Shown piece after piece: positions 8,959 to 43,325 of a stretch of DNA of 52,915 bases (position 1 is its first letter; every line of letters starts with the position of its first letter). The stretch lies in contig LCIE01000005.1 of NCBI GenBank assembly GCA_001000865.1, positions 1 to 52,915 on the forward strand. Reading direction: 5' to 3'. The notes beneath the pieces were generated by a model, which was not told the DNA's origin, ran no database searches, and worked only from the letters and a program-made list of their open reading frames with translations. The DNA comes from Candidatus Collierbacteria bacterium GW2011_GWC2_44_18 (GTDB taxonomy: Bacteria; Patescibacteriota; Microgenomatia; UBA1400; MFAQ01). The position numbers and the translations under genes are program-made.

Positions 8959-9880
8959 TTCTGGTACGTTGACTGATTGTTAATTCTTCAATCGAGGGTT
9001 CGATTGGTTTTTGGTTAATAGCGCTGAGAATTCCTTTGTTTTCGAAATCGATAATAAAATTTTTGACAAGTCTGTCTTCCCCAGAATGAAAGCTGATGAT
9101 CCCCATTAGGCCGCTGGTTTTGAGTAAATTCGGAAGCTGAGGTAGGAGCAAGTGGATATTTTCTCTTTCTAGGTTGACGGCCATGCGGAGAGCCATAAAG
9201 ACTTTGGTGGCGGGGTGAATACGTCCATGCCTACCGGCAGGTAAACCTTCTGTCCGAAACTTTTTGATCCGAGTAATTAGATCACTAAGCTGTTTGGTAG
9301 TGGTGATGGGAGCAATTTGTCTTTGTTTGGCAATGATGCGGGCAATGGGCTTGGCAAAGGGTTCATCCGCCATGGAGAAAAGTTTGACCAGTTCTCCTTC
9401 ATTCAGGACTGCTAGGAGGTCAGCGGCGGTCACCCCAAGGGTTTGATCCAGTCTCATGTCAAGTAGTTCGTTCCCTGAAAAGCTAAAACCTCGACCCTCT
9501 GAAAGAAGCTGAAACTGAGAAGGGCCTAGGTCCACCATAACGCCGTCAAAATCCGGTAAAGAAAGTCTTTTGCTGACTTCGGTAACTTTGGTGAAATTAC
9601 TCTGGATGATTATCCAGACAAAATCTTTGGGAACTCGAGTGTTTTCGTCCTTACTGTCGATAATAAGGGGCTGAAAATCCTTGATATAATCGGTGGCTCG
9701 TTTGATAGCCTTTTCGTCAACGTCAAATGAAACAACATGGCAACCGGACTCCAATGCCTCCTGCGTGTGGCCGCCATCTCCCAATGTCAGATCAAGGAAA
9801 AGATAGCCGGGTTTGAATCCATAAAGATGCTTAAGTTCGCCTTTATATGCTGGAAAATGACGCTCAATTATGTGTGTCAT
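8924..9880 (-). CDS. rsmH: 16S rRNA (cytosine(1402)-N(4))-methyltransferase RsmH (MraW)
   Basis: LDLTLGDGGHTQEAL, DGVMVDLGPSQFQL, RGFSF, RIHPATKVFMALRMAVN, ISFHSGEDRLVKNF; next to mraZ. Confidence 0.96.
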   Translation of the reverse strand: MTHIIERHFPAYKGELKHLYGFKPGYLFLDLTLGDGGHTQEALESGCHVVSFDVDEKAIKRATDYIKDFQPLIIDSKDENTRVPKDFVWIIIQSNFTKVTEVSKRLSLPDFDGVMVDLGPSQFQLLSEGRGFSFSGNELLDMRLDQTLGVTAADLLAVLNEGELVKLFSMADEPFAKPIARIIAKQRQIAPITTTKQLSDLITRIKKFRTEGLPAGRHGRIHPATKVFMALRMAVNLERENIHLLLPQLPNLLKTSGLMGIISFHSGEDRLVKNFIIDFENKGILSAINQKPIEPSIEELTISQRTRSAKLRFAKKII

Positions 9881-10305
9881 ATTGCTAGCGAGGCGAGGGC
9901 GTCTCCGTCACTAATTGTTTGCGCTATTAAGTCAAGGTGCTGATGGTATAGCTCTTGGTCCCAGATTTCAATTCTGGTCAGAGACCCGGCGACGACCACC
10001 TGCTTTTTTAGATTGGCTTGATTCCTTAGATATTCCGGTATGAGAGTTCTTCCTTGTCCGTCCAAGTCGAGATTGACGGCTGATTGCACTAAGAGACGTG
10101 TCAAATTTCGGGCCGCCGGATTGGTCAATGGTAGGGAGGCCAGCTTTTCGGAGAACTTCTGCCAATATGAGCTGGGGAAAAGAAATAGACATCCATCCAG
10201 CCCCGAAGTGATGACTCCACCGGATGCCAGTCCTTCTCTGAAGGCCTGTGGAATAGCCAAACGCCCTTTGGCTTCCAGTCGATGGTAGTAGAGTCCAGTA
10301 AACAT
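9877..10305 (-). CDS. mraZ: Transcriptional regulator MraZ
   Basis: Two SpoVT/AbrB-like repeats (LEAKGRLAIPQAFR; LDGQGRTLIPEYLR), first gene of dcw cluster. Confidence 0.95.
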   Translation of the reverse strand: MFTGLYYHRLEAKGRLAIPQAFREGLASGGVITSGLDGCLFLFPSSYWQKFSEKLASLPLTNPAARNLTRLLVQSAVNLDLDGQGRTLIPEYLRNQANLKKQVVVAGSLTRIEIWDQELYHQHLDLIAQTISDGDALASLAI

Positions 10306-10345
10306 AATTCATAGGCAGGCTCAGTGGTATTTATAGGTTACTTCA

Positions 10346-10362
10346 CCACTTGTCACCACTTT
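10346..10362 (-). promoter_or_regulatory. Two MraZ-box-like repeats upstream of mraZ
   Basis: Minus strand reads AAAGTGGTGACAAGTGGTG: AAAGTGG and CAAGTGG in direct orientation with 10-nt period, just upstream of a TATAAA (10330-10335). Confidence 0.65.
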
Positions 10363-10469
10363 CCAGTATGATACACAATATATGACATGTCAAGGGTCTA
10401 TTTGGCCTCAAAACTACATGTGGAAAGAGAATGTGAAAATAAAAAAAGCAGAAATAGTATGATTATGTT

Positions 10470-11096
10470 GTGAATAACAAAGAAGGGTTTGTATTGATGG
10501 ATGTTTTGCTTGCAATGGCTATCTTGACTGTTTTGGCTACTGGTTATTTCTTAAATTCTCGTGGATATATAGCAAGAGCATACGATGTTCGTCGAAAAGA
10601 TGATTTGAATAATATCCAGATATACCTTGAGTCGTACTACGATTCCTTTGATACTTATCCAGAAGACTTGCCAGACTGCGATCAAAGCCTAACCTTCAAG
10701 CAAAAAAAAGTCTCGCCATCCATTCCCTGCGATCCTACCACGAAGCGACCGTACTATTACGAAACACAGGCCGATGGATATCAATCTTACAAAGTCTACG
10801 CACTACTAGAAAACACACAAGATGCGTCAATTGAAAAAGTTAGCTGTACCAAAGGGTGTGGCCCGTCATGTGCATATAACTACGGCGTTTCGAGTCCGAA
10901 CGTAATTCTGAATACCTGTGATGTCTACTATGTCTGCGCTCCCGGTGGTGGGAAGGAGGGTAGCTGTGAAGTGTATGCCGATCCAGTCAAGAGTAACTGC
11001 CCAGAATCATACAAGAACGACCCAACTTGCAGGAATGCATGTTCTGATCCTAAAAACCGTTGTAAAAACGCCTCGGGAAAATTTGTTCCTAAGTAA
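10470..11096 (+). CDS. Prepilin-like / pseudopilin, cysteine-rich
   Basis: Short leader then G^FVLMDVLLAMAILTVLATGYFLNSR, typical type III prepilin cleavage and hydrophobic helix; 12 Cys in C-terminal domain; GTG start. Confidence 0.8.
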   Translation: MNNKEGFVLMDVLLAMAILTVLATGYFLNSRGYIARAYDVRRKDDLNNIQIYLESYYDSFDTYPEDLPDCDQSLTFKQKKVSPSIPCDPTTKRPYYYETQADGYQSYKVYALLENTQDASIEKVSCTKGCGPSCAYNYGVSSPNVILNTCDVYYVCAPGGGKEGSCEVYADPVKSNCPESYKNDPTCRNACSDPKNRCKNASGKFVPK

Positions 11097-11140: not shown

Positions 11141-11172
11141 TATTTGTATAAAACGATAGGGCCGAGAAGGTA
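11141..11172. repeat. 32-bp direct repeat, copy 1
   Basis: tatttgtataaaacgatagggccgagaaggta; 30/32 identical to 12012-12043. Confidence 0.9.
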
Positions 11173-11201
11173 TTAGCTTAGCCGTAACTATGATCGTGGG
11201 C

Positions 11202-11230
11202 TTGAATAGTGGATTAGTTTGTGATAGTAT
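11202..11230 (+). promoter_or_regulatory. Putative sigma70-like promoter of Nfu_N-like gene
   Basis: TTGAAT (11202-11207), 17-nt spacer, TAGTAT (11225-11230). Confidence 0.5.
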
Positions 11231-11245
11231 TCGCCCATAGTCTTT

Positions 11246-11261
11246 TGCCCCTTACGGGGCA
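11246..11261 (+). promoter_or_regulatory. 5' UTR hairpin
   Basis: Perfect 6-bp stem TGCCCC-TTAC-GGGGCA upstream of the AAGGAG Shine-Dalgarno (11302-11307). Confidence 0.45.
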
Positions 11262-11313
11262 TGAGCGGCCTTTGAATAACTATCCCCAAATTCCGAAAGC
11301 TAAGGAGAAAGAA

Positions 11314-11964
11314 ATGACCTCACTTCATGTCGTCTCGATCAAGAAGACTCAGCCTCGTGCTACGTGGGTGGAATACACAACCAGAACCTTGCTACAGAAC
11401 AAGGCGATCGAAATGTTCAGCTTCCCGATGCAACGAATCGACATCGTCGACCTGGTCCAGAAGCATGGTATCGCGATCGCCATGATGGTGGTCGAGCTGA
11501 ATCAAACGAAGCATGTGAACAATGTCTTCGTAAATCCGTACAATGTCAGCATTTCGATGTTCGATGGCTTCGTGGTTGACAAGCACATTGACGCGATTAT
11601 CGAAAAGATGGTTTTGAACTCCGCCGTTATTGAAGCTCTAAAGACCCGAACGCCGGTGCAAGTCGAAGCTTTTCCAAACCAGAATATCCATGATTTCCAC
11701 ACTAAAGTGAATTTGGCCGGTAGTGAAAGTGGCCACTTTCACCGACCTCTACGCACCTCCAACATTGATCTGCTCAAACTGAACAGTAAGGGTCGGTCGA
11801 TTGTGGAGAGGATCATGAAGGTCCCCGGTGTTGTCGAGGTGTCCATCTACCAATACAGTCTGACGGTGGAAAAAGCCGACCTGTTCGACTGGTCGGAGAT
11901 CGAGCCGGCCGTCTTTGAGGCCATCGCCCGGCAATTTGGTGATCTGAAGATCACCCGCAAGTAA
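11314..11964 (+). CDS. Cysteine-free protein with Nfu/NifU N-terminal-like fold (probably two repeats)
   Basis: ATG at 11314 preceded by AAGGAG; C-terminal VEAFPNQN...SIVERIMKVPGVVEVSIYQYSLTVEK..FDWSEIEPAVFEAIARQFG resembles Nfu_N (EATPNPN...LFAIPGVxxVFFGxDFITVTK..W..LKPAIxxAI). Confidence 0.65.
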   Translation: MTSLHVVSIKKTQPRATWVEYTTRTLLQNKAIEMFSFPMQRIDIVDLVQKHGIAIAMMVVELNQTKHVNNVFVNPYNVSISMFDGFVVDKHIDAIIEKMVLNSAVIEALKTRTPVQVEAFPNQNIHDFHTKVNLAGSESGHFHRPLRTSNIDLLKLNSKGRSIVERIMKVPGVVEVSIYQYSLTVEKADLFDWSEIEPAVFEAIARQFGDLKITRK

Positions 11965-11978
11965 ACATCTGTTCGTCA

Positions 11979-12004
11979 CGCCCCGCATTTTGCGGGGCGT
12001 TTTT
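11979..12004 (+). terminator. Rho-independent terminator (may serve both strands)
   Basis: CGCCCCGCA-TTT-TGCGGGGCG stem followed by TTTTT. Confidence 0.9.
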
Positions 12005-12010
12005 ATGAGA

Positions 12011-12100
12011 TTATTTGTATAGGACGATAGGGCCGAGAAGGTAGAGGGTAAGAGATTCTTTGGAGCCCTGTACATCGTCACGAGTGATCTCGGCTTTCAT
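12011..12100 (-). CDS. Candidate 29-aa translationally coupled small protein
   Basis: MKAEITRDDVQGSKESLTLYLLGPIVLYK*; ATG overlaps the TGA of the upstream lipoprotein gene (ATGA); last 10 codons repeated at 11141-11172 with only synonymous differences. Confidence 0.4.
   Translation of the reverse strand: MKAEITRDDVQGSKESLTLYLLGPIVLYK
12012..12043. repeat. 32-bp direct repeat, copy 2
   Basis: tatttgtataggacgatagggccgagaaggta; matches 11141-11172. Confidence 0.9.
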
Positions 12101-12810
12101 TGACCAAGGTTTTTGATTGAGAGGTAACTCTGACCATCATAGATAGCGGCAGAGACAACTCCTGCCTGGTTAAAGGTAAGTGTGCCGGAAATTACTTTGT
12201 CGTTGGTCGAAGAAAACACGACAGGGTAGAGCAAAATCTCTTTTTCTGATGGTTTGGGAAGTCCGAACGAGTTAAGCATTATCAAATTTTCTTTAGCCGT
12301 AAGTTTGGAAGGCTCAAAAATAACCTTGCCATCGGGCATGTTTTTCTGGCCGGTCAAAAAAACAAAATCACCCTTGAGAATATGGGTTACGTCTTGGCCT
12401 GGGAAAGTAAGTTTGAGTTTTTCTGTTCCAGATTTTAGATCTTTATCAAAAGTACACTTACCACCGGTCGAACAGCTACCCAAAATAATTGCTTTGATAA
12501 AAGTACTGGCGATGGGTGAGTCAATTGAGGCTCTAGCACCTTTGAGTAGATCCCCTGACTGATATTCCACATCTATCGAAGCGGACTGGGCTTTGTCGGC
12601 GCCAATAGTGACGAAAGTAAATAGACGATTGGTGGCATGAGGAACCAAAACGGTAAATGGACGTTCCGAGAGAGCTAGTTCGTTGACAAGCAGTTTGGTA
12701 ATAAGTGGCTGATTTTTATCGGTTGCCGGAGTGGTGGAATTTTTTTTGGCCCCACAGCCGGCTAGAAGCAAGGCAAATATAAAGACAGGAAGGATGTGTT
12801 GGATTTTCAT
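12097..12810 (-). CDS. Putative lipoprotein
   Basis: Signal peptide with lipobox LLAGC; rest unrecognised. Confidence 0.7.
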   Translation of the reverse strand: MKIQHILPVFIFALLLAGCGAKKNSTTPATDKNQPLITKLLVNELALSERPFTVLVPHATNRLFTFVTIGADKAQSASIDVEYQSGDLLKGARASIDSPIASTFIKAIILGSCSTGGKCTFDKDLKSGTEKLKLTFPGQDVTHILKGDFVFLTGQKNMPDGKVIFEPSKLTAKENLIMLNSFGLPKPSEKEILLYPVVFSSTNDKVISGTLTFNQAGVVSAAIYDGQSYLSIKNLGQ

Positions 12811-13453: not shown

Positions 13454-15325
13454 TTAGTTTAGGGTCACTTCCTTATCTTGGTCCACATCAACAACTATCT
13501 GACTACCATTGAAAACAATGGTGTGCCTGATGGAGGGAGTGCCCGGTTGTTTTTGAATGTACATCCTATAGGTAGAGAGTTCCAGGGGAGGCAGTTCATA
13601 TTTGAAAACTATTTTGCTACTTGACTGTGGCCTCATGGTAAAGAAAGCTTCAAAAACTGTTTTATCCATGTCTTCAGAAACTTGCTCCTTGACCTCGGAT
13701 CCGACTACGGATAATAACTTTGAGCCTTTGGGAACTAGTAATCGAATGTAATCTCGATAAACACCATTTAAACAGAGCTGACCAGCTTCCAAATTGCAGT
13801 TACTGCCTTTCCGAGGATTGTTATAGTTGATAGATACTGTTTTGGTGACGGTATCTCCGGATTTTTCTATTTCCTGTTCAACCTCACGAGTGATATACAT
13901 ATCCGACTTGGCTCCGCCAAAATTGGCATCATTGATATGGAGATAATCATAAGAGTATGCCCGGATACGGCCGGCAGCGTTGAAATCCTCGGCCACTTTC
14001 TGAGTTTTGTCCTCCATGAAATAAAAGAGTAGGTGCTTTTGCTTGATAGCATCGAGAACTACATTTACCATCTTTGGCCAGGTGTGTTTGGGGCTGCCTA
14101 TGGCATTAGCCATCATAGAATGCATCAAGGGTCCGAGAACGGCTTTGCGACCCGCCCTTACTCCAGCAACCGGTCGATCAGCAATTTGTTCGAGAGCATA
14201 AACTACCTGTGGGCAATCACAAGCAGGATCATTTTCGGAGCTAAAGTTTCCCCAGCCTCCGACGCCAATAGGTCCAATTACCTTCAATATTTCCACCGGA
14301 AAACGAGTGTCGATGGCGATTATGCCATCCGGTTTCGGAAAACCGGGAATGTCACGATAATATTTATAGAAAAGATCCATAGAAACTTTGTAATCAGGCG
14401 ACATATTGGAATTTCGAAGATTTAGATAAGTCTCATTAAGATATTTTTTAACCGCCTCTGGCGCAGGAACTTTTTTGTTAAAACGGGCATCGAGATCGTA
14501 AATATCAAACGAGGAAAGGGGCTCTATCTTACCCTTGGTAACTCTCAAAAATGCGTATGCGGTCATAAAACCTCCAGTGGGGCGGAGCTCGGCATCGTTC
14601 TGAAAAAGTACCATGTAAGTTTTGGAGTTTGGATTTCCAAGCAAGTCAGGTAAAAGTTTTATCAATGGCTTTGCTTGGGACAATAATTGAGAAGATTCTG
14701 CGACGGTTGTTTTTACTTCAACAATTTTGCTTCGGATATTTTTTCCGGAAATGCTTTCCGGATAACGAGCGGGGTCTATCTGATCGAGTTCTTTTTGAGC
14801 AGCAGCCATGTCAGCCTCGACCTTTTCTAGGTCAGGACTGATTTTATCTAAGGTCTGAGCCATAAAAACTATCCTGTCTTCGATCGATTGAGCTTTGGGC
14901 TGGCCGGAGGGTGTAGCGATGTCTGTTTTGAAACCTAGCAGATCGGCATAAGGCTCTACCGAAGCAATTAATGTTTCAACTGATTTAATTAAATATTTCC
15001 CCGCATTTATACCGTGTTGACCATCTTTTTGGTAGGCACCTAAAAAGGGAATGAAGCTGGTCCAGCCAACTTTTTGATATTTGGTGTCTAGTTCTCCCAT
15101 TAACTTGCTCAAATTCTCAGCTTGAAGCTTGGCAGCGATCAAATCCTGACTTTGAAATGCGGTAGACAACTTTGTCCCCGCTTCTTGGAGGGCTTGTATG
15201 TTGGGAACAAAAGATTTGGAGGTGAAATAACCATAAATTCCAAACCCACCAAGTAATAAAATGATGGCAGCTAAGGGGATGAGAAAATATAGAATTTTTT
15301 TGTTGAACTTAAAATTGATTTTCAT
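13454..15325 (-). CDS. DUF4012 domain-containing membrane-anchored protein
   Basis: N-terminal TM; YMVLFQNDAELRPTGGFMTAYAFLRVTKGKI; resembles DUF4012 family linked to surface polysaccharide loci. Confidence 0.8.
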   Translation of the reverse strand: MKINFKFNKKILYFLIPLAAIILLLGGFGIYGYFTSKSFVPNIQALQEAGTKLSTAFQSQDLIAAKLQAENLSKLMGELDTKYQKVGWTSFIPFLGAYQKDGQHGINAGKYLIKSVETLIASVEPYADLLGFKTDIATPSGQPKAQSIEDRIVFMAQTLDKISPDLEKVEADMAAAQKELDQIDPARYPESISGKNIRSKIVEVKTTVAESSQLLSQAKPLIKLLPDLLGNPNSKTYMVLFQNDAELRPTGGFMTAYAFLRVTKGKIEPLSSFDIYDLDARFNKKVPAPEAVKKYLNETYLNLRNSNMSPDYKVSMDLFYKYYRDIPGFPKPDGIIAIDTRFPVEILKVIGPIGVGGWGNFSSENDPACDCPQVVYALEQIADRPVAGVRAGRKAVLGPLMHSMMANAIGSPKHTWPKMVNVVLDAIKQKHLLFYFMEDKTQKVAEDFNAAGRIRAYSYDYLHINDANFGGAKSDMYITREVEQEIEKSGDTVTKTVSINYNNPRKGSNCNLEAGQLCLNGVYRDYIRLLVPKGSKLLSVVGSEVKEQVSEDMDKTVFEAFFTMRPQSSSKIVFKYELPPLELSTYRMYIQKQPGTPSIRHTIVFNGSQIVVDVDQDKEVTLN

Positions 15326-40095: not shown

Positions 40096-40644
40096 CTATT
40101 TACATGCCTGCCAGAGACCCACTTGAGCTTCTCTTGCCTGTCTTCCGCTGGTGATAAATTGATCTTTGAACTTCACGTCTGGCGGAAAAGTGGAGATCTT
40201 GGCATAGCCTTCTTTTACCAAGGTATCGTTAATCATTTCGTCTCCCAGATATACGTATCTCAAAAGCCGACCGTATTTATCGGTTTCGGAGACATCTTTG
40301 ACCAAGACAACTTCTTTACCGTTCAGCAGTGACTCCACCTTCTGCTTGGCTTCCGTAGCAAAACAGTCGATAGTTCTGTTTTTGTTCTTCATTTCCGGTG
40401 TGTCTATTCCGATGAGTCGCACCTTGATTCCGCCTTCGATCTCAATAGTGTCTCCATCAATAACCCTGGTTACTTTTTCGGTGGAATTGACAGTGTGGGA
40501 AGTTTCTATTGTGAGGTTGCTATTGCTTGGTGCGGTAACGGTGGAGGTGTGATTTAGAAAAAAGAAAAGTAAATAGATATAGGTACCAAGAAAGGAAGCT
40601 GAAAGAAATATTTTGGATAATTTTGCCGGTTTGGCTGTCACCAC
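40096..40644 (-). CDS. Thermonuclease (SNase) family protein
   Basis: RVIDGDTIEIEGGIKVRLIGIDTPEM; TDKYGRLLRYVYLGDEMINDTLVKEGYAKI; N-terminal TM. Confidence 0.93.
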   Translation of the reverse strand: MVTAKPAKLSKIFLSASFLGTYIYLLFFFLNHTSTVTAPSNSNLTIETSHTVNSTEKVTRVIDGDTIEIEGGIKVRLIGIDTPEMKNKNRTIDCFATEAKQKVESLLNGKEVVLVKDVSETDKYGRLLRYVYLGDEMINDTLVKEGYAKISTFPPDVKFKDQFITSGRQAREAQVGLWQACK

Positions 40645-40662
40645 TTAATTATGTCACATAAT

Positions 40663-40704
40663 TTATATTCCCCAGGAATAAACACCGATTCCCCAGTGGT
40701 TATT
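40663..40704 (-). pseudogene. C-terminal remnant of a paralogue of the 41910-43325 membrane protein
   Basis: Encodes NNHWGIGVYSWGI*, matching NDHWGISVYSWGI* of the intact gene; stop at the same position. Confidence 0.75.
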
Positions 40705-40721
40705 CCGGACAAGATCCGGAA
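40703..40721. repeat. REP-like hairpin at truncation boundary
   Basis: TTCCGGA-CAAGA-TCCGGAA. Confidence 0.6.
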
Positions 40722-40777
40722 CCATCCGGTGTTGTCTACTCTCTCACTTTCCAGGGGCCTCTTTTGATTTCCGAGGA

Positions 40778-40966
40778 TTAAAGATTAATTTTAATTTTGT
40801 CTGTCACGTAGTGGTGTATCAAGGTCGAAAGAAGTGTCTGGTAAGGTATGCCGGAACCAGAAGCACGACGAATTTCCTCCTCCATATTTGGAACTTCTTC
40901 GAACTCTCCAGCCTCGAACTGGTCTAGTATAAGCTTTTCTTCTTTTGTAAGTTTAAGTTCTTTCAT
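40778..40966 (-). CDS. Short RHH/CopG-like antitoxin-type protein
   Basis: 62 aa; GSGIPYQTLLSTLIHHYVTDKI typical of short RHH antitoxins. Confidence 0.65.
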   Translation of the reverse strand: MKELKLTKEEKLILDQFEAGEFEEVPNMEEEIRRASGSGIPYQTLLSTLIHHYVTDKIKINL

Positions 40967-41052
40967 TTTTTGTTTTCTTTATTAATTAAATAATCGCGCG
41001 TGGCTTTGATCAACCAATTAGGCCGAATTGGGGGATTAGAGTTCGTTTGGAC

Positions 41053-41418
41053 CTATTTTCTTGGACTGTGAGAGATTTTAAAAATTGATTTATTTGGTAA
41101 CCGCCTGGAAAGCATTGCGACGATCTTCTTATCAATCTCCTCCTCTCGCATTGTCTCTGTGATACAGATCAATTGGACTTTATTGATGTTACACAAATCA
41201 ATCATGTGTTTGTCATTCTTGGAAATTAGTATCCTTTTTTGCTTCTTCGCGAGCAAGACAACATCCTCGTCTTTTAACCCAGACCCCTTGACGTCATGAA
41301 CTATATGCTTAAGATTATGAAGTTTGTTAAGAATCGGAAATTTGTCCCTCTTGGGAAGCATCTCGTCTAAGAGGAGTTTGAATCTATCTTGATGCGGAGA
41401 CACGGTATCCTCCGTCAA
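41053..41418 (-). CDS. DUF5615-like PIN-type toxin candidate
   Basis: LLLDEMLP... DVKGSGLKDEDVVLLAKKQKRILISKNDKHMIDL; partner of upstream DUF433 gene. Confidence 0.7.
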   Translation of the reverse strand: MTEDTVSPHQDRFKLLLDEMLPKRDKFPILNKLHNLKHIVHDVKGSGLKDEDVVLLAKKQKRILISKNDKHMIDLCNINKVQLICITETMREEEIDKKIVAMLSRRLPNKSIFKISHSPRK

Positions 41419-41617
41419 TTAATTTTTTAAAAGCGAGGATCTTTTCCATCGTCAATGAGGGATATTCGTAGTTTATGATCTTGTCTGAATAACCCACCCT
41501 TAAAAGTCTAGCTAGAAGAGTGACTGGAATCCTCGTGCCTGTTATTACCGGTGTGCCTCCAAGTATTTCAGGATCTTTGACGATCAGATCTGACGATGAT
41601 GTTTTTTTGATTGGCAT
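41384..41617 (-). CDS. DUF433 antitoxin candidate
   Basis: IVKDPEILGGTPVITGTRIPVTLLARLLRVGYSDKIINYEYPSLTMEKI is DUF433-like. Confidence 0.85.
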   Translation of the reverse strand: MPIKKTSSSDLIVKDPEILGGTPVITGTRIPVTLLARLLRVGYSDKIINYEYPSLTMEKILAFKKLIDGGYRVSASR

Positions 41618-41664
41618 AGTAATATATTAACACTAAATCCTCAGATCATCTCATCTTGTAATTC

Positions 41665-41781
41665 CCGACCCCCCGCCCGCCAAAGGCCGGAGTTGGATTC
41701 TCTTGCCTGTCTTCCGCTGGTGATAAATTGATCTTTGAACTTCACATCCGACGGAAAGGTGGAGATCTTTGCGAAGCCTGG
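41665..41781 (-). pseudogene. Remnant of a second thermonuclease gene (C-terminal fragment)
   Basis: Reverse complement encodes FAKISTFPSDVKFKDQFITSGRQARESNSGLWRAG versus YAKISTFPPDVKFKDQFITSGRQAREAQVGLWQAC in 40096-40644. Confidence 0.85.
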
Positions 41782-41909
41782 AGAACATTACCCTTTACCG
41801 ACAAAAGTGGGACAAGATCAAACCAGCTATCAAATATCAACTGGCGTTAGAGATGAGGCCCCTCCTACTGGCGGGCAGGCTTAAAGGCTGGATTTATTTA
41901 GTCTTCTCA

Positions 41910-43325
41910 TCAAATCCCCCAGGAATAAACGCTGATTCCCCAATGGTCATTTTCGTTGTATGGTAAATCCTGAACGGTAAACTCAAACTTCAGATTTTTG
42001 CGAACATATTCTTTGATATCTTCATTCATTAGACTTTCCCAGTCTTCAACTATCACAATTCCTGATTCATAAAGTTTTTTCTCTGCTTCAAACTCTTTGA
42101 TAGTTCCCAGTATTTTTTCGCCAAAAACTGGATCTATTTTGCCTGCACCGTCTTTGAAGAGAAAAATATACTTCTGTCCGGGGAGATACCAGGGCACGCG
42201 GTCGTTCCAGGCATCCATTACAATCACATCTTTTTTATCCTTAATTAAATTTTGGATTTTGGCGAAAGCAAACTTGTAATCCACTATCGGATTTTCACGC
42301 ATGTCTGCGTTTATGGAATAGTAGTATTTAGGCCAAAAAACAAATTTACCGGTAAGACTTAAAAGTGCGACGGTCAAGATTACAAGTAACCATCTTAAAC
42401 ATTCTCTCTTGGTGACCTTGTCTATGACAGAGACCACCCCTTCGGCAAATAGAAGATACATGAGAGGAAAGGCGGGAAGCGAGTACCGGACATATCTGGG
42501 GTTAATTTTGAAAATAGCGATAGCAAAAATAAAGACGACCGATCCGCCAAGAAGAACTGCCAACTCTTTGTTTCTTCTGTAAAGAGTAAAAAAGCCGATA
42601 GAGGCTCCAAAAATTAGCCAAAGATAGTTGTGGGTCAGGAAAATACGATAGTGGAGAGGGGAAAAATAGATTTTGAAGATGACGTGATGGACAAACCCCC
42701 ACCCTCCCCCCATAGAACGATACACAACCCACACGCCGGTAATAATAAGGAGTGGAAGAACAGATATATAGACATACTTTTTATATTTTATTATTTTGTA
42801 CATAAAAATTAGGCCAACTATAGCAAGATTTAAAATCCCTGTGCCATGGAAAAGACAGGACAATAAGGAAACGGTGACAGAATAAATAAAATATTTATCT
42901 AATAATTTCCAGGGGGATTTTATATATTGATATAAAAAGTAAGAAATTAGCAGAGTGAAAAGTTCGAGCCAGATATAGGGCCTTAGTTGAGTGGACCAGG
43001 CCAGCTGGATTTGAGAGAAAGTTAGTAAGAAAGCAACTATTGTTGCAGTTCTCAGACTGAAAAGCTTCTTGGCTATGAAATAGCCAGTAATGACAAGCCC
43101 AGCTCCTGCAAGGACAGACGGAAGTCTGCCAGTAAACTCGGAGATCCCGAAAATCTTAAACGAAAGCGCGGTGATGTAATAAAGAATTATCTGATAGATC
43201 CCCGTACTGTAACCAGCGGGTGTTATTGGCCTTCCGTACTCCAAAACCCCACGTGCCATTATTGCAACATGACTCTCATCATTCCAAAAAGAGTGGTTGG
43301 AACTAATCCCCTTCAACAATTTCAA
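41910..43325 (-). CDS. GT39/ArnT-like membrane glycosyltransferase
   Basis: Multi-TM; FWNDESHVAIMARGVLEYGRPITPAGYSTGIYQIILYYITALSFKIFGISEFTGRLPSVLAG. Confidence 0.82.
   Translation of the reverse strand: MKLLKGISSNHSFWNDESHVAIMARGVLEYGRPITPAGYSTGIYQIILYYITALSFKIFGISEFTGRLPSVLAGAGLVITGYFIAKKLFSLRTATIVAFLLTFSQIQLAWSTQLRPYIWLELFTLLISYFLYQYIKSPWKLLDKYFIYSVTVSLLSCLFHGTGILNLAIVGLIFMYKIIKYKKYVYISVLPLLIITGVWVVYRSMGGGWGFVHHVIFKIYFSPLHYRIFLTHNYLWLIFGASIGFFTLYRRNKELAVLLGGSVVFIFAIAIFKINPRYVRYSLPAFPLMYLLFAEGVVSVIDKVTKRECLRWLLVILTVALLSLTGKFVFWPKYYYSINADMRENPIVDYKFAFAKIQNLIKDKKDVIVMDAWNDRVPWYLPGQKYIFLFKDGAGKIDPVFGEKILGTIKEFEAEKKLYESGIVIVEDWESLMNEDIKEYVRKNLKFEFTVQDLPYNENDHWGISVYSWGI

What the first reader, a model, noticed from the sequence alone, without database searches (positions are those of the whole stretch)
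11141..12043. Self-contained single-gene cassette flanked by 32-bp direct repeats that duplicate the 3' end of a small ORF
Direct observation: 11141-11172 and 12012-12043 are 30/32 identical in the same orientation, 871 bp apart. Between them lies a complete transcription unit: promoter-like TTGAAT-17-TAGTAT, hairpin leader, AAGGAG, ORF 11314-11964, strong terminator. The ORF looks richer in G/C-ending codons than its neighbours. On the minus strand both repeats encode YLLGPIVLYK*, and the only two differences (GTC CTA versus GTT TTA) are synonymous. Copy 2 is the end of a 29-codon ORF coupled to the lipoprotein gene; copy 1 has an in-frame TAA directly upstream. Inference: a small cassette may have inserted at the 3' end of a gene and restored that end, as integrating elements do at tRNA or conserved gene 3' ends, but here with one cargo gene and no visible integrase. 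A local duplication is the alternative.
Basis: partly seen in the sequence, partly recalled or inferred. Interest (0 to 1): 0.75.

Follow-up and report, generated by a model that had tools for sequence, protein, structure and literature searches.

The report
Scar of a swapped-in gene cassette
In this ultra-small bacterium a one-gene cassette was added behind a lipoprotein gene in a spot where related species carry different genes, and the 32-base repeat is the left-behind tail of the neighbouring gene, most likely a scar of imperfect DNA exchange and not the mark of a mobile element with its own integrase.

Summary
The repeat is real: 30/32 bases, the only two copies in the organism's genome, chance expectation zero. 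Copy 2 is the true 3' end of the lipoprotein gene. Copy 1 is a detached duplicate; no relative has two copies. The stretch between this gene end and mraZ is an exchange slot: congeners carry RAYT-type transposase genes, small lipoproteins, unrelated small ORFs, or (one species) a diverged relative of the window's Nfu_N-domain gene with similar flanking signals. The cassette ORF has GC3 0.66 against 0.41-0.50 in sampled window genes. The same genome has two more loci with the same anatomy, both toxin-antitoxin-like pairs behind a gene whose 3' end reappears beyond them. At one, sister and outgroup synteny place the detached copy at the ancestral position, so cassette plus restored end came in. 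No integrase or common target sequence was found; repeat lengths and divergences differ; flanks are interspecies mosaics. Insertion at a gene's 3' end is supported; an integrating element is not. Most likely cause: one-sided homologous recombination with illegitimate second joining (HFIR-like), inferred. New member of a known kind; moderate interest.

The parts
9877..10305 (-). mraZ; fixed left border of the exchange slot
   Evidence: 71-95% identical orthologue found in 14 of 15 relatives, on the far side of the slot
10306..10469 (.). mraZ upstream region; its last ~50 bp, up to the GTGAATAAC start codon, match the 5' flank and start codon of the RAYT gene of relative G005
   Evidence: local alignment score 50 against null maximum 37; 98% to G002 over 95 bp but 85% to G006
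10470..11096 (+). pseudopilin-like gene, extra cargo in the slot
   Evidence: not in this slot in any relative examined; nearest homologues (51%) lie elsewhere in G009 and G013
11141..11172 (-). copy 1: detached duplicate of the last 10 codons plus stop of the lipoprotein gene
11173..11313 (+). upstream region of the cassette; contains a stretch alignable with the region upstream of the G004 cassette (TGATAGTATTCG-CCCATAGTC)
   Evidence: shuffle p = 0.004
11314..11964 (+). cassette gene, 216 aa, C-terminal Nfu_N domain (PF08712); N-terminal half 26% identical to the G004 slot protein
   Evidence: Pfam E = 1.7e-10; G004 E = 8.5e-10; PF08712 found in none of the other 93 genomes of the order searched
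11978..12005 (+). intrinsic terminator of the cassette
   Evidence: 10-bp stem plus T run, z = -5.2
12012..12043 (-). copy 2: true 3' end of the lipoprotein gene
   Evidence: in-frame orthologous end in relatives
12011..12810 (-). lipoprotein gene, frame broken by a 43-bp deletion near 12123; right border of the slot
   Evidence: alignment with G006, G008, G002; orthologue in 14 of 15 relatives
40667..40704 (-). second locus: detached 3' end (HWGIGVYSWGI*) of the PMT_2-type gene 41910-43325
41053..41617 (-). second locus: DUF433 + DUF5615 toxin-antitoxin-like pair lying between the two gene ends
   Evidence: Pfam PF04255 E = 4.9e-17, PF18480 E = 2.5e-8
41675..41779 (-). second locus: 105-bp fragment (84% identical) of the nuclease gene 40096-40644
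41914..41951 (-). second locus: true 3' end (HWGISVYSWGI*) of the PMT_2-type gene

Best explanation
The interval between the 3' end of the lipoprotein gene and mraZ is a variable slot whose contents are exchanged between strains and species by recombination through the conserved flanking genes. In this lineage DNA carrying 'lipoprotein 3' part - Nfu_N cassette' entered a chromosome whose slot already held the pilin. One end recombined homologously within the lipoprotein gene; the other end was joined without homology a few codons before the recipient's own gene end. The recipient's last 10 codons plus stop were thereby left detached beyond the cassette as copy 1. Shown: the repeat, slot variability, mosaic flanks, the same anatomy at two other loci, and at one of them that the detached copy is in the ancestral position. 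Inferred: the donor allele, the entry route (possibly natural transformation), the order pilin first then cassette, and that the second joint was illegitimate.
For: Slot contents differ between relatives and recur patchily across the two clades of the genus: RAYT in G002, G008, G005, G007; Nfu-type in G000 and G004; small lipoprotein-like ORF in G001 and G006. Cassette non-coding flanks resemble those of G004 in the same slot. Flanking identity is mosaic: 10300-10394 is 98% to G002, while the matching region is 85% to G006; most of 14100-14900 is closest to G008. Copies 1 and 2 share a base (CCT) that sister G006 lacks, so they appear to come from within this lineage. No relative has two copies. 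At the second locus the inserted segment also carries a nuclease-gene fragment, as a fused pair of alleles would. At the RimK locus (contig C25 of this genome; also in G006) DNA beyond the detached end in G006 is orthologous to DNA after the intact end in G002, G003, G009, G014 (z = 21-71), while the toxin-antitoxin DNA matches only G000. No sequence common to the three junctions was seen by eye, and repeat length varies. HFIR is described in competent bacteria (PMC3240628) and proposed for displaced genes and gene tails in V. cholerae (PMC5361080); Patescibacteria are reported to retain recombination and DNA-uptake genes (PMC12455944).
Against: No genome carries the predicted donor or recipient allele. 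RAYT-tail remnants beside copies 1 and 2, which would have tied both alleles to one ancestor, were not significant. The complete relative G002 has no clear case of a detached gene end, so the process is sporadic. In this genome 3'-end duplicates are not more numerous than 5'-end matches in the raw scan (4 against 8, the latter mostly repeated motifs). At the RimK locus of G000 itself the contig ends 98 bp past the detached copy and that sequence does not align with G006, so the synteny evidence is from G006 only.
Confidence: 0.58

Rival explanations
1. Local tandem duplication: a segment [lipoprotein end + cassette] was duplicated in place, then the distal cassette copy was lost or replaced by the pilin gene.
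For: Copies 1 and 2 are closer to each other than to G006 (shared CCT); a repeat in the same orientation is what such a duplication leaves.
Against: Needs an additional replacement step; no trace of a second cassette copy remains; does not account for the nuclease fragment at the second locus, or for the orthologous DNA beyond the detached end at the RimK locus unless every distal copy was precisely lost.
Confidence: 0.2
2. A site-specific integrating mini-element: the cassette circle carries the 32-bp gene end as attachment site and integrates at the lipoprotein gene with an integrase supplied in trans, restoring the end.
For: Classical topology with a direct repeat at both borders and a restored gene end; single-gene unit with its own terminator.
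Against: No integrase inside; the three loci use unrelated gene ends with repeats of 32, 38 and 82 bp and 6-18% divergence; homologues of the cassette gene in other genomes have no comparable flanking repeats; congeners with the 32-mer do not share the insertion.
Confidence: 0.1
3. Assembly chimera: two strain variants of the slot were joined by the assembler.
For: This is a 38-contig assembly; sister G006 has a contig ending 19 nt into the repeat.
Against: The longest exact shared word of the two copies is 20 bases, short for a usual assembly k-mer, and the critical junction (11172/11173) is the outer edge of a repeat copy, not its interior; the RimK-locus arrangement recurs in a second, separate assembly.
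Confidence: 0.08

Closest known systems
Homology-facilitated illegitimate recombination (HFIR) in naturally competent bacteria (PMC3240628; de Vries and Wackernagel 2002 and Prudhomme 2002, cited in PMC5361080)
   Same: One homologous anchor plus one non-homologous joint adds foreign DNA next to a conserved gene
   Different: Here inferred from genome anatomy only; the duplication of a short gene end is a particular outcome; I found no demonstration in Patescibacteria
Sequential displacement at T6SS effector-immunity loci of Vibrio cholerae (PMC5361080) and C-terminal displacement in rhs genes (Jackson 2009, cited there)
   Same: A conserved upstream gene part anchors the event; the old piece is shifted downstream of the newcomer
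   Different: There the displaced pieces are immunity genes or toxin tails of the same system; here they are 11-28 codon ends of lipoprotein, PMT_2-type and RimK-like genes, and the cargo is unrelated
Integrative elements that target the 3' end of genes and restore it (general knowledge)
   Same: Topology: gene end on both sides of the insert, gene end restored
   Different: No integrase, no constant attachment sequence, variable repeat length
Moron genes of temperate phages (general knowledge; only listed papers)
   Same: Single gene with its own terminator, odd base composition, between conserved genes
   Different: Chromosomal slot without phage genes around; no match of the cassette protein in phage records or PHROGs

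Membership tests
HFIR-type displacement scar | homologous anchor gene upstream of the insert, with a detached duplicate of its tail beyond the insert | tested here: met
HFIR-type displacement scar | detached tail sits in the ancestral position (followed by DNA that follows the intact end in relatives) | tested here: inconclusive
   met at the RimK locus via G006; at the lipoprotein locus copy 1 faces the mraZ side but the pilin gene intervenes
HFIR-type displacement scar | donor allele with the cassette directly next to the gene end and without the detached tail | tested here: inconclusive
   G004 carries a diverged relative of the cassette directly after the single gene end, but it is too distant to be the donor
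Integrative element at a gene 3' end | integrase or recombinase gene inside | tested here: not met
   only one gene between the repeats, an Nfu_N-domain protein
Integrative element at a gene 3' end | same attachment sequence used by related insertions | tested here: not met
   three different gene ends; Nfu_N homologues elsewhere lack comparable flanking repeats
Integron gene cassette | attC site, next to an integron integrase gene | not tested
   no attC model was run; no integrase among the genes of the interval
Nfu_N domain protein (PF08712) | score over the Pfam gathering cut-off | tested here: met
   41.2 bits against cut-off 27

The most novel reading that the evidence does not exclude
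Patescibacteria add small single-gene or toxin-antitoxin units behind conserved genes by a recurrent, integrase-free route in which a donor gene end acts as the homology arm, so that detached gene ends are readable records of each import.
Probability: 0.2. Interest if true: 0.65.

Novelty: new member of a known kind. Interest (0 to 1): 0.42.

Why it matters
It gives a sequence-level signature (a detached gene end beyond a small cassette, with outgroup empty sites) by which gene import into reduced Patescibacteria genomes could be counted and oriented without integrases or transposases. It also shows one intergenic slot next to the division-gene cluster whose content turns over between closely related species.

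Tried and rejected
RAYT-tail remnants next to copies 1 and 2 looked suggestive by eye but were mostly not significant against shuffles. The synonymous-difference argument for coding constraint was dropped because the two differences are adjacent bases. Homologues of the cassette protein: none in genome contigs by the pattern search, phages, plasmids or PHROGs; viral contigs gave no answer twice. Rfam: no match above gathering. PADLOC: none for the cassette or the toxin-antitoxin-like genes. G002 whole-genome scan for detached gene ends: no clear case. Structure prediction was not run; it would not bear on the repeat.

Full report
Observation. The repeat pair 11141-11172 / 12012-12043 is real, 30 of 32 bases, same orientation, 871 bp apart. 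A 26-base core with three mismatches allowed finds no third copy in the 861-kb assembly. Between the copies lies one gene, 11314-11964, with a Shine-Dalgarno AAGGAG and a strong terminator (z = -5.2). The promoter is weak by consensus and was not called; the leader hairpin is not unusual. GC is 0.498 and GC3 0.664 for this gene; seven sampled window genes have GC3 0.41-0.50. The encoded 216-aa protein has an Nfu_N domain (PF08712, 41.2 bits, cut-off 27).

Correction. In relatives the lipoprotein reads through to ...YLLGPIVLYK* or a close variant. In the window a 43-bp deletion breaks the frame, so the '29-codon ORF' is the gene's own severed C-terminus. Copy 2 is therefore the true gene end and copy 1 a detached duplicate. 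The two differences between the copies are adjacent (CC versus TT) and may be one event.

The site. The lipoprotein gene and mraZ are each found in 14 of 15 genus and family members, and the interval between them varies: 158-186 bp without a gene in G013 and G014; a Y1_Tnp (RAYT-type) transposase gene in G002, G008, G005, G007 (Pfam checked for G002; the others by evident sequence similarity); a small lipoprotein-like ORF in G001 and, on the mraZ-side contig, in G006; an 89-aa ORF in G003; a 98-aa ORF in G012; a glmS-like gene in G009; and in G004 a 108-aa protein that is 26% identical to the N-terminal half of the window protein (E = 8.5e-10). The G004 unit lies at the same place and orientation, and its upstream and terminator regions align with the window's (p = 0.004 and 0.002 against mononucleotide shuffles). 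A tree of three proteins puts G000 with G006 in one clade and G004 in the other, so cargo types recur across clades. The 32-mer is single in G001-G005, G007, G008 and G014. In G006 the lipoprotein contig stops 19 nt into it.

More cases in the same genome. Scanning 855,653 of 860,944 bases gave two loci with the same anatomy. In the window, a DUF433/DUF5615 pair lies between the end of gene 41910-43325 (HWGISVYSWGI*) and a detached copy (HWGIGVYSWGI*, 40667-40704); the inserted segment also holds a 105-bp fragment of the adjacent nuclease gene. On contig C25 a toxin-antitoxin-like pair (HigB-like toxin and RHH-like antitoxin, both below Pfam cut-offs) lies between the end of a RimK-like gene and an 82-bp, 82%-identical copy. 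The RimK arrangement is shared by sister G006. DNA beyond the detached end in G006 is orthologous to DNA that follows the intact gene end in G002, G003, G009 and G014 (z = 21-71), and the pair's DNA matches only G000. So at that locus the detached copy is in the ancestral position and the pair plus the restored end came in. In the complete relative G002 no clear case was found.

Mechanism. The three target ends are unrelated, repeats are 32, 38 and 82 bp, divergence is 6-18%, no integrase is present, and Nfu_N homologues in other genomes lack comparable flanking repeats. Flanks of the slot are interspecies mosaics: 98% to G002 at 10300-10394 where sister G006 is about 85%, and mostly nearest G008 at 14100-14900. 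A one-sided homologous exchange anchored in the conserved gene, with the second joint made without homology inside the recipient's copy of the gene end, yields this anatomy in one step. This is HFIR (PMC3240628), and a like mechanism was proposed for displaced genes and tails at V. cholerae effector loci (PMC5361080). Patescibacteria are reported to keep recombination genes and DNA uptake (PMC12455944). The mechanism itself is inferred; the donor allele was not seen. Local tandem duplication (0.2), a trans-mobilised mini-element (0.1) and assembly chimera (0.08) remain.

Verdict. New member of a known kind, interest 0.42.

Noticed in passing
window 40096-43325: DUF433/DUF5615 toxin-antitoxin-like pair between a PMT_2-type gene end and its detached copy, with a 105-bp fragment of the neighbouring nuclease gene inside the inserted stretch.
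   Followed up: partly
own genome contig C25 (L097:99-1719): Toxin-antitoxin-like pair behind a RimK-like gene whose 82-bp 3' end recurs beyond the pair; shared with sister G006, empty sites in G002, G003, G009, G014.
   Followed up: yes
window 12097-12140: Lipoprotein gene broken by a 43-bp deletion absent in relatives; the severed part overlaps the upstream frame by ATGA.
   Followed up: partly
window 10420-10480: The pilin start codon and its 5' flank match the start and 5' flank of the transposase gene in relative G005, as if the pilin replaced that gene from its start codon on.
   Followed up: partly
window 14100-14900: Stretch closer to G008 (about 84%) than to sister G006 (about 75%), a sign of interspecies homologous exchange.
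   Followed up: no
L067:1123-1899 (G180:C60): 258-aa protein with two Nfu_N-like stretches in a distant genome of the phylum, suggesting a small family of tandem Nfu_N proteins.
   Followed up: no
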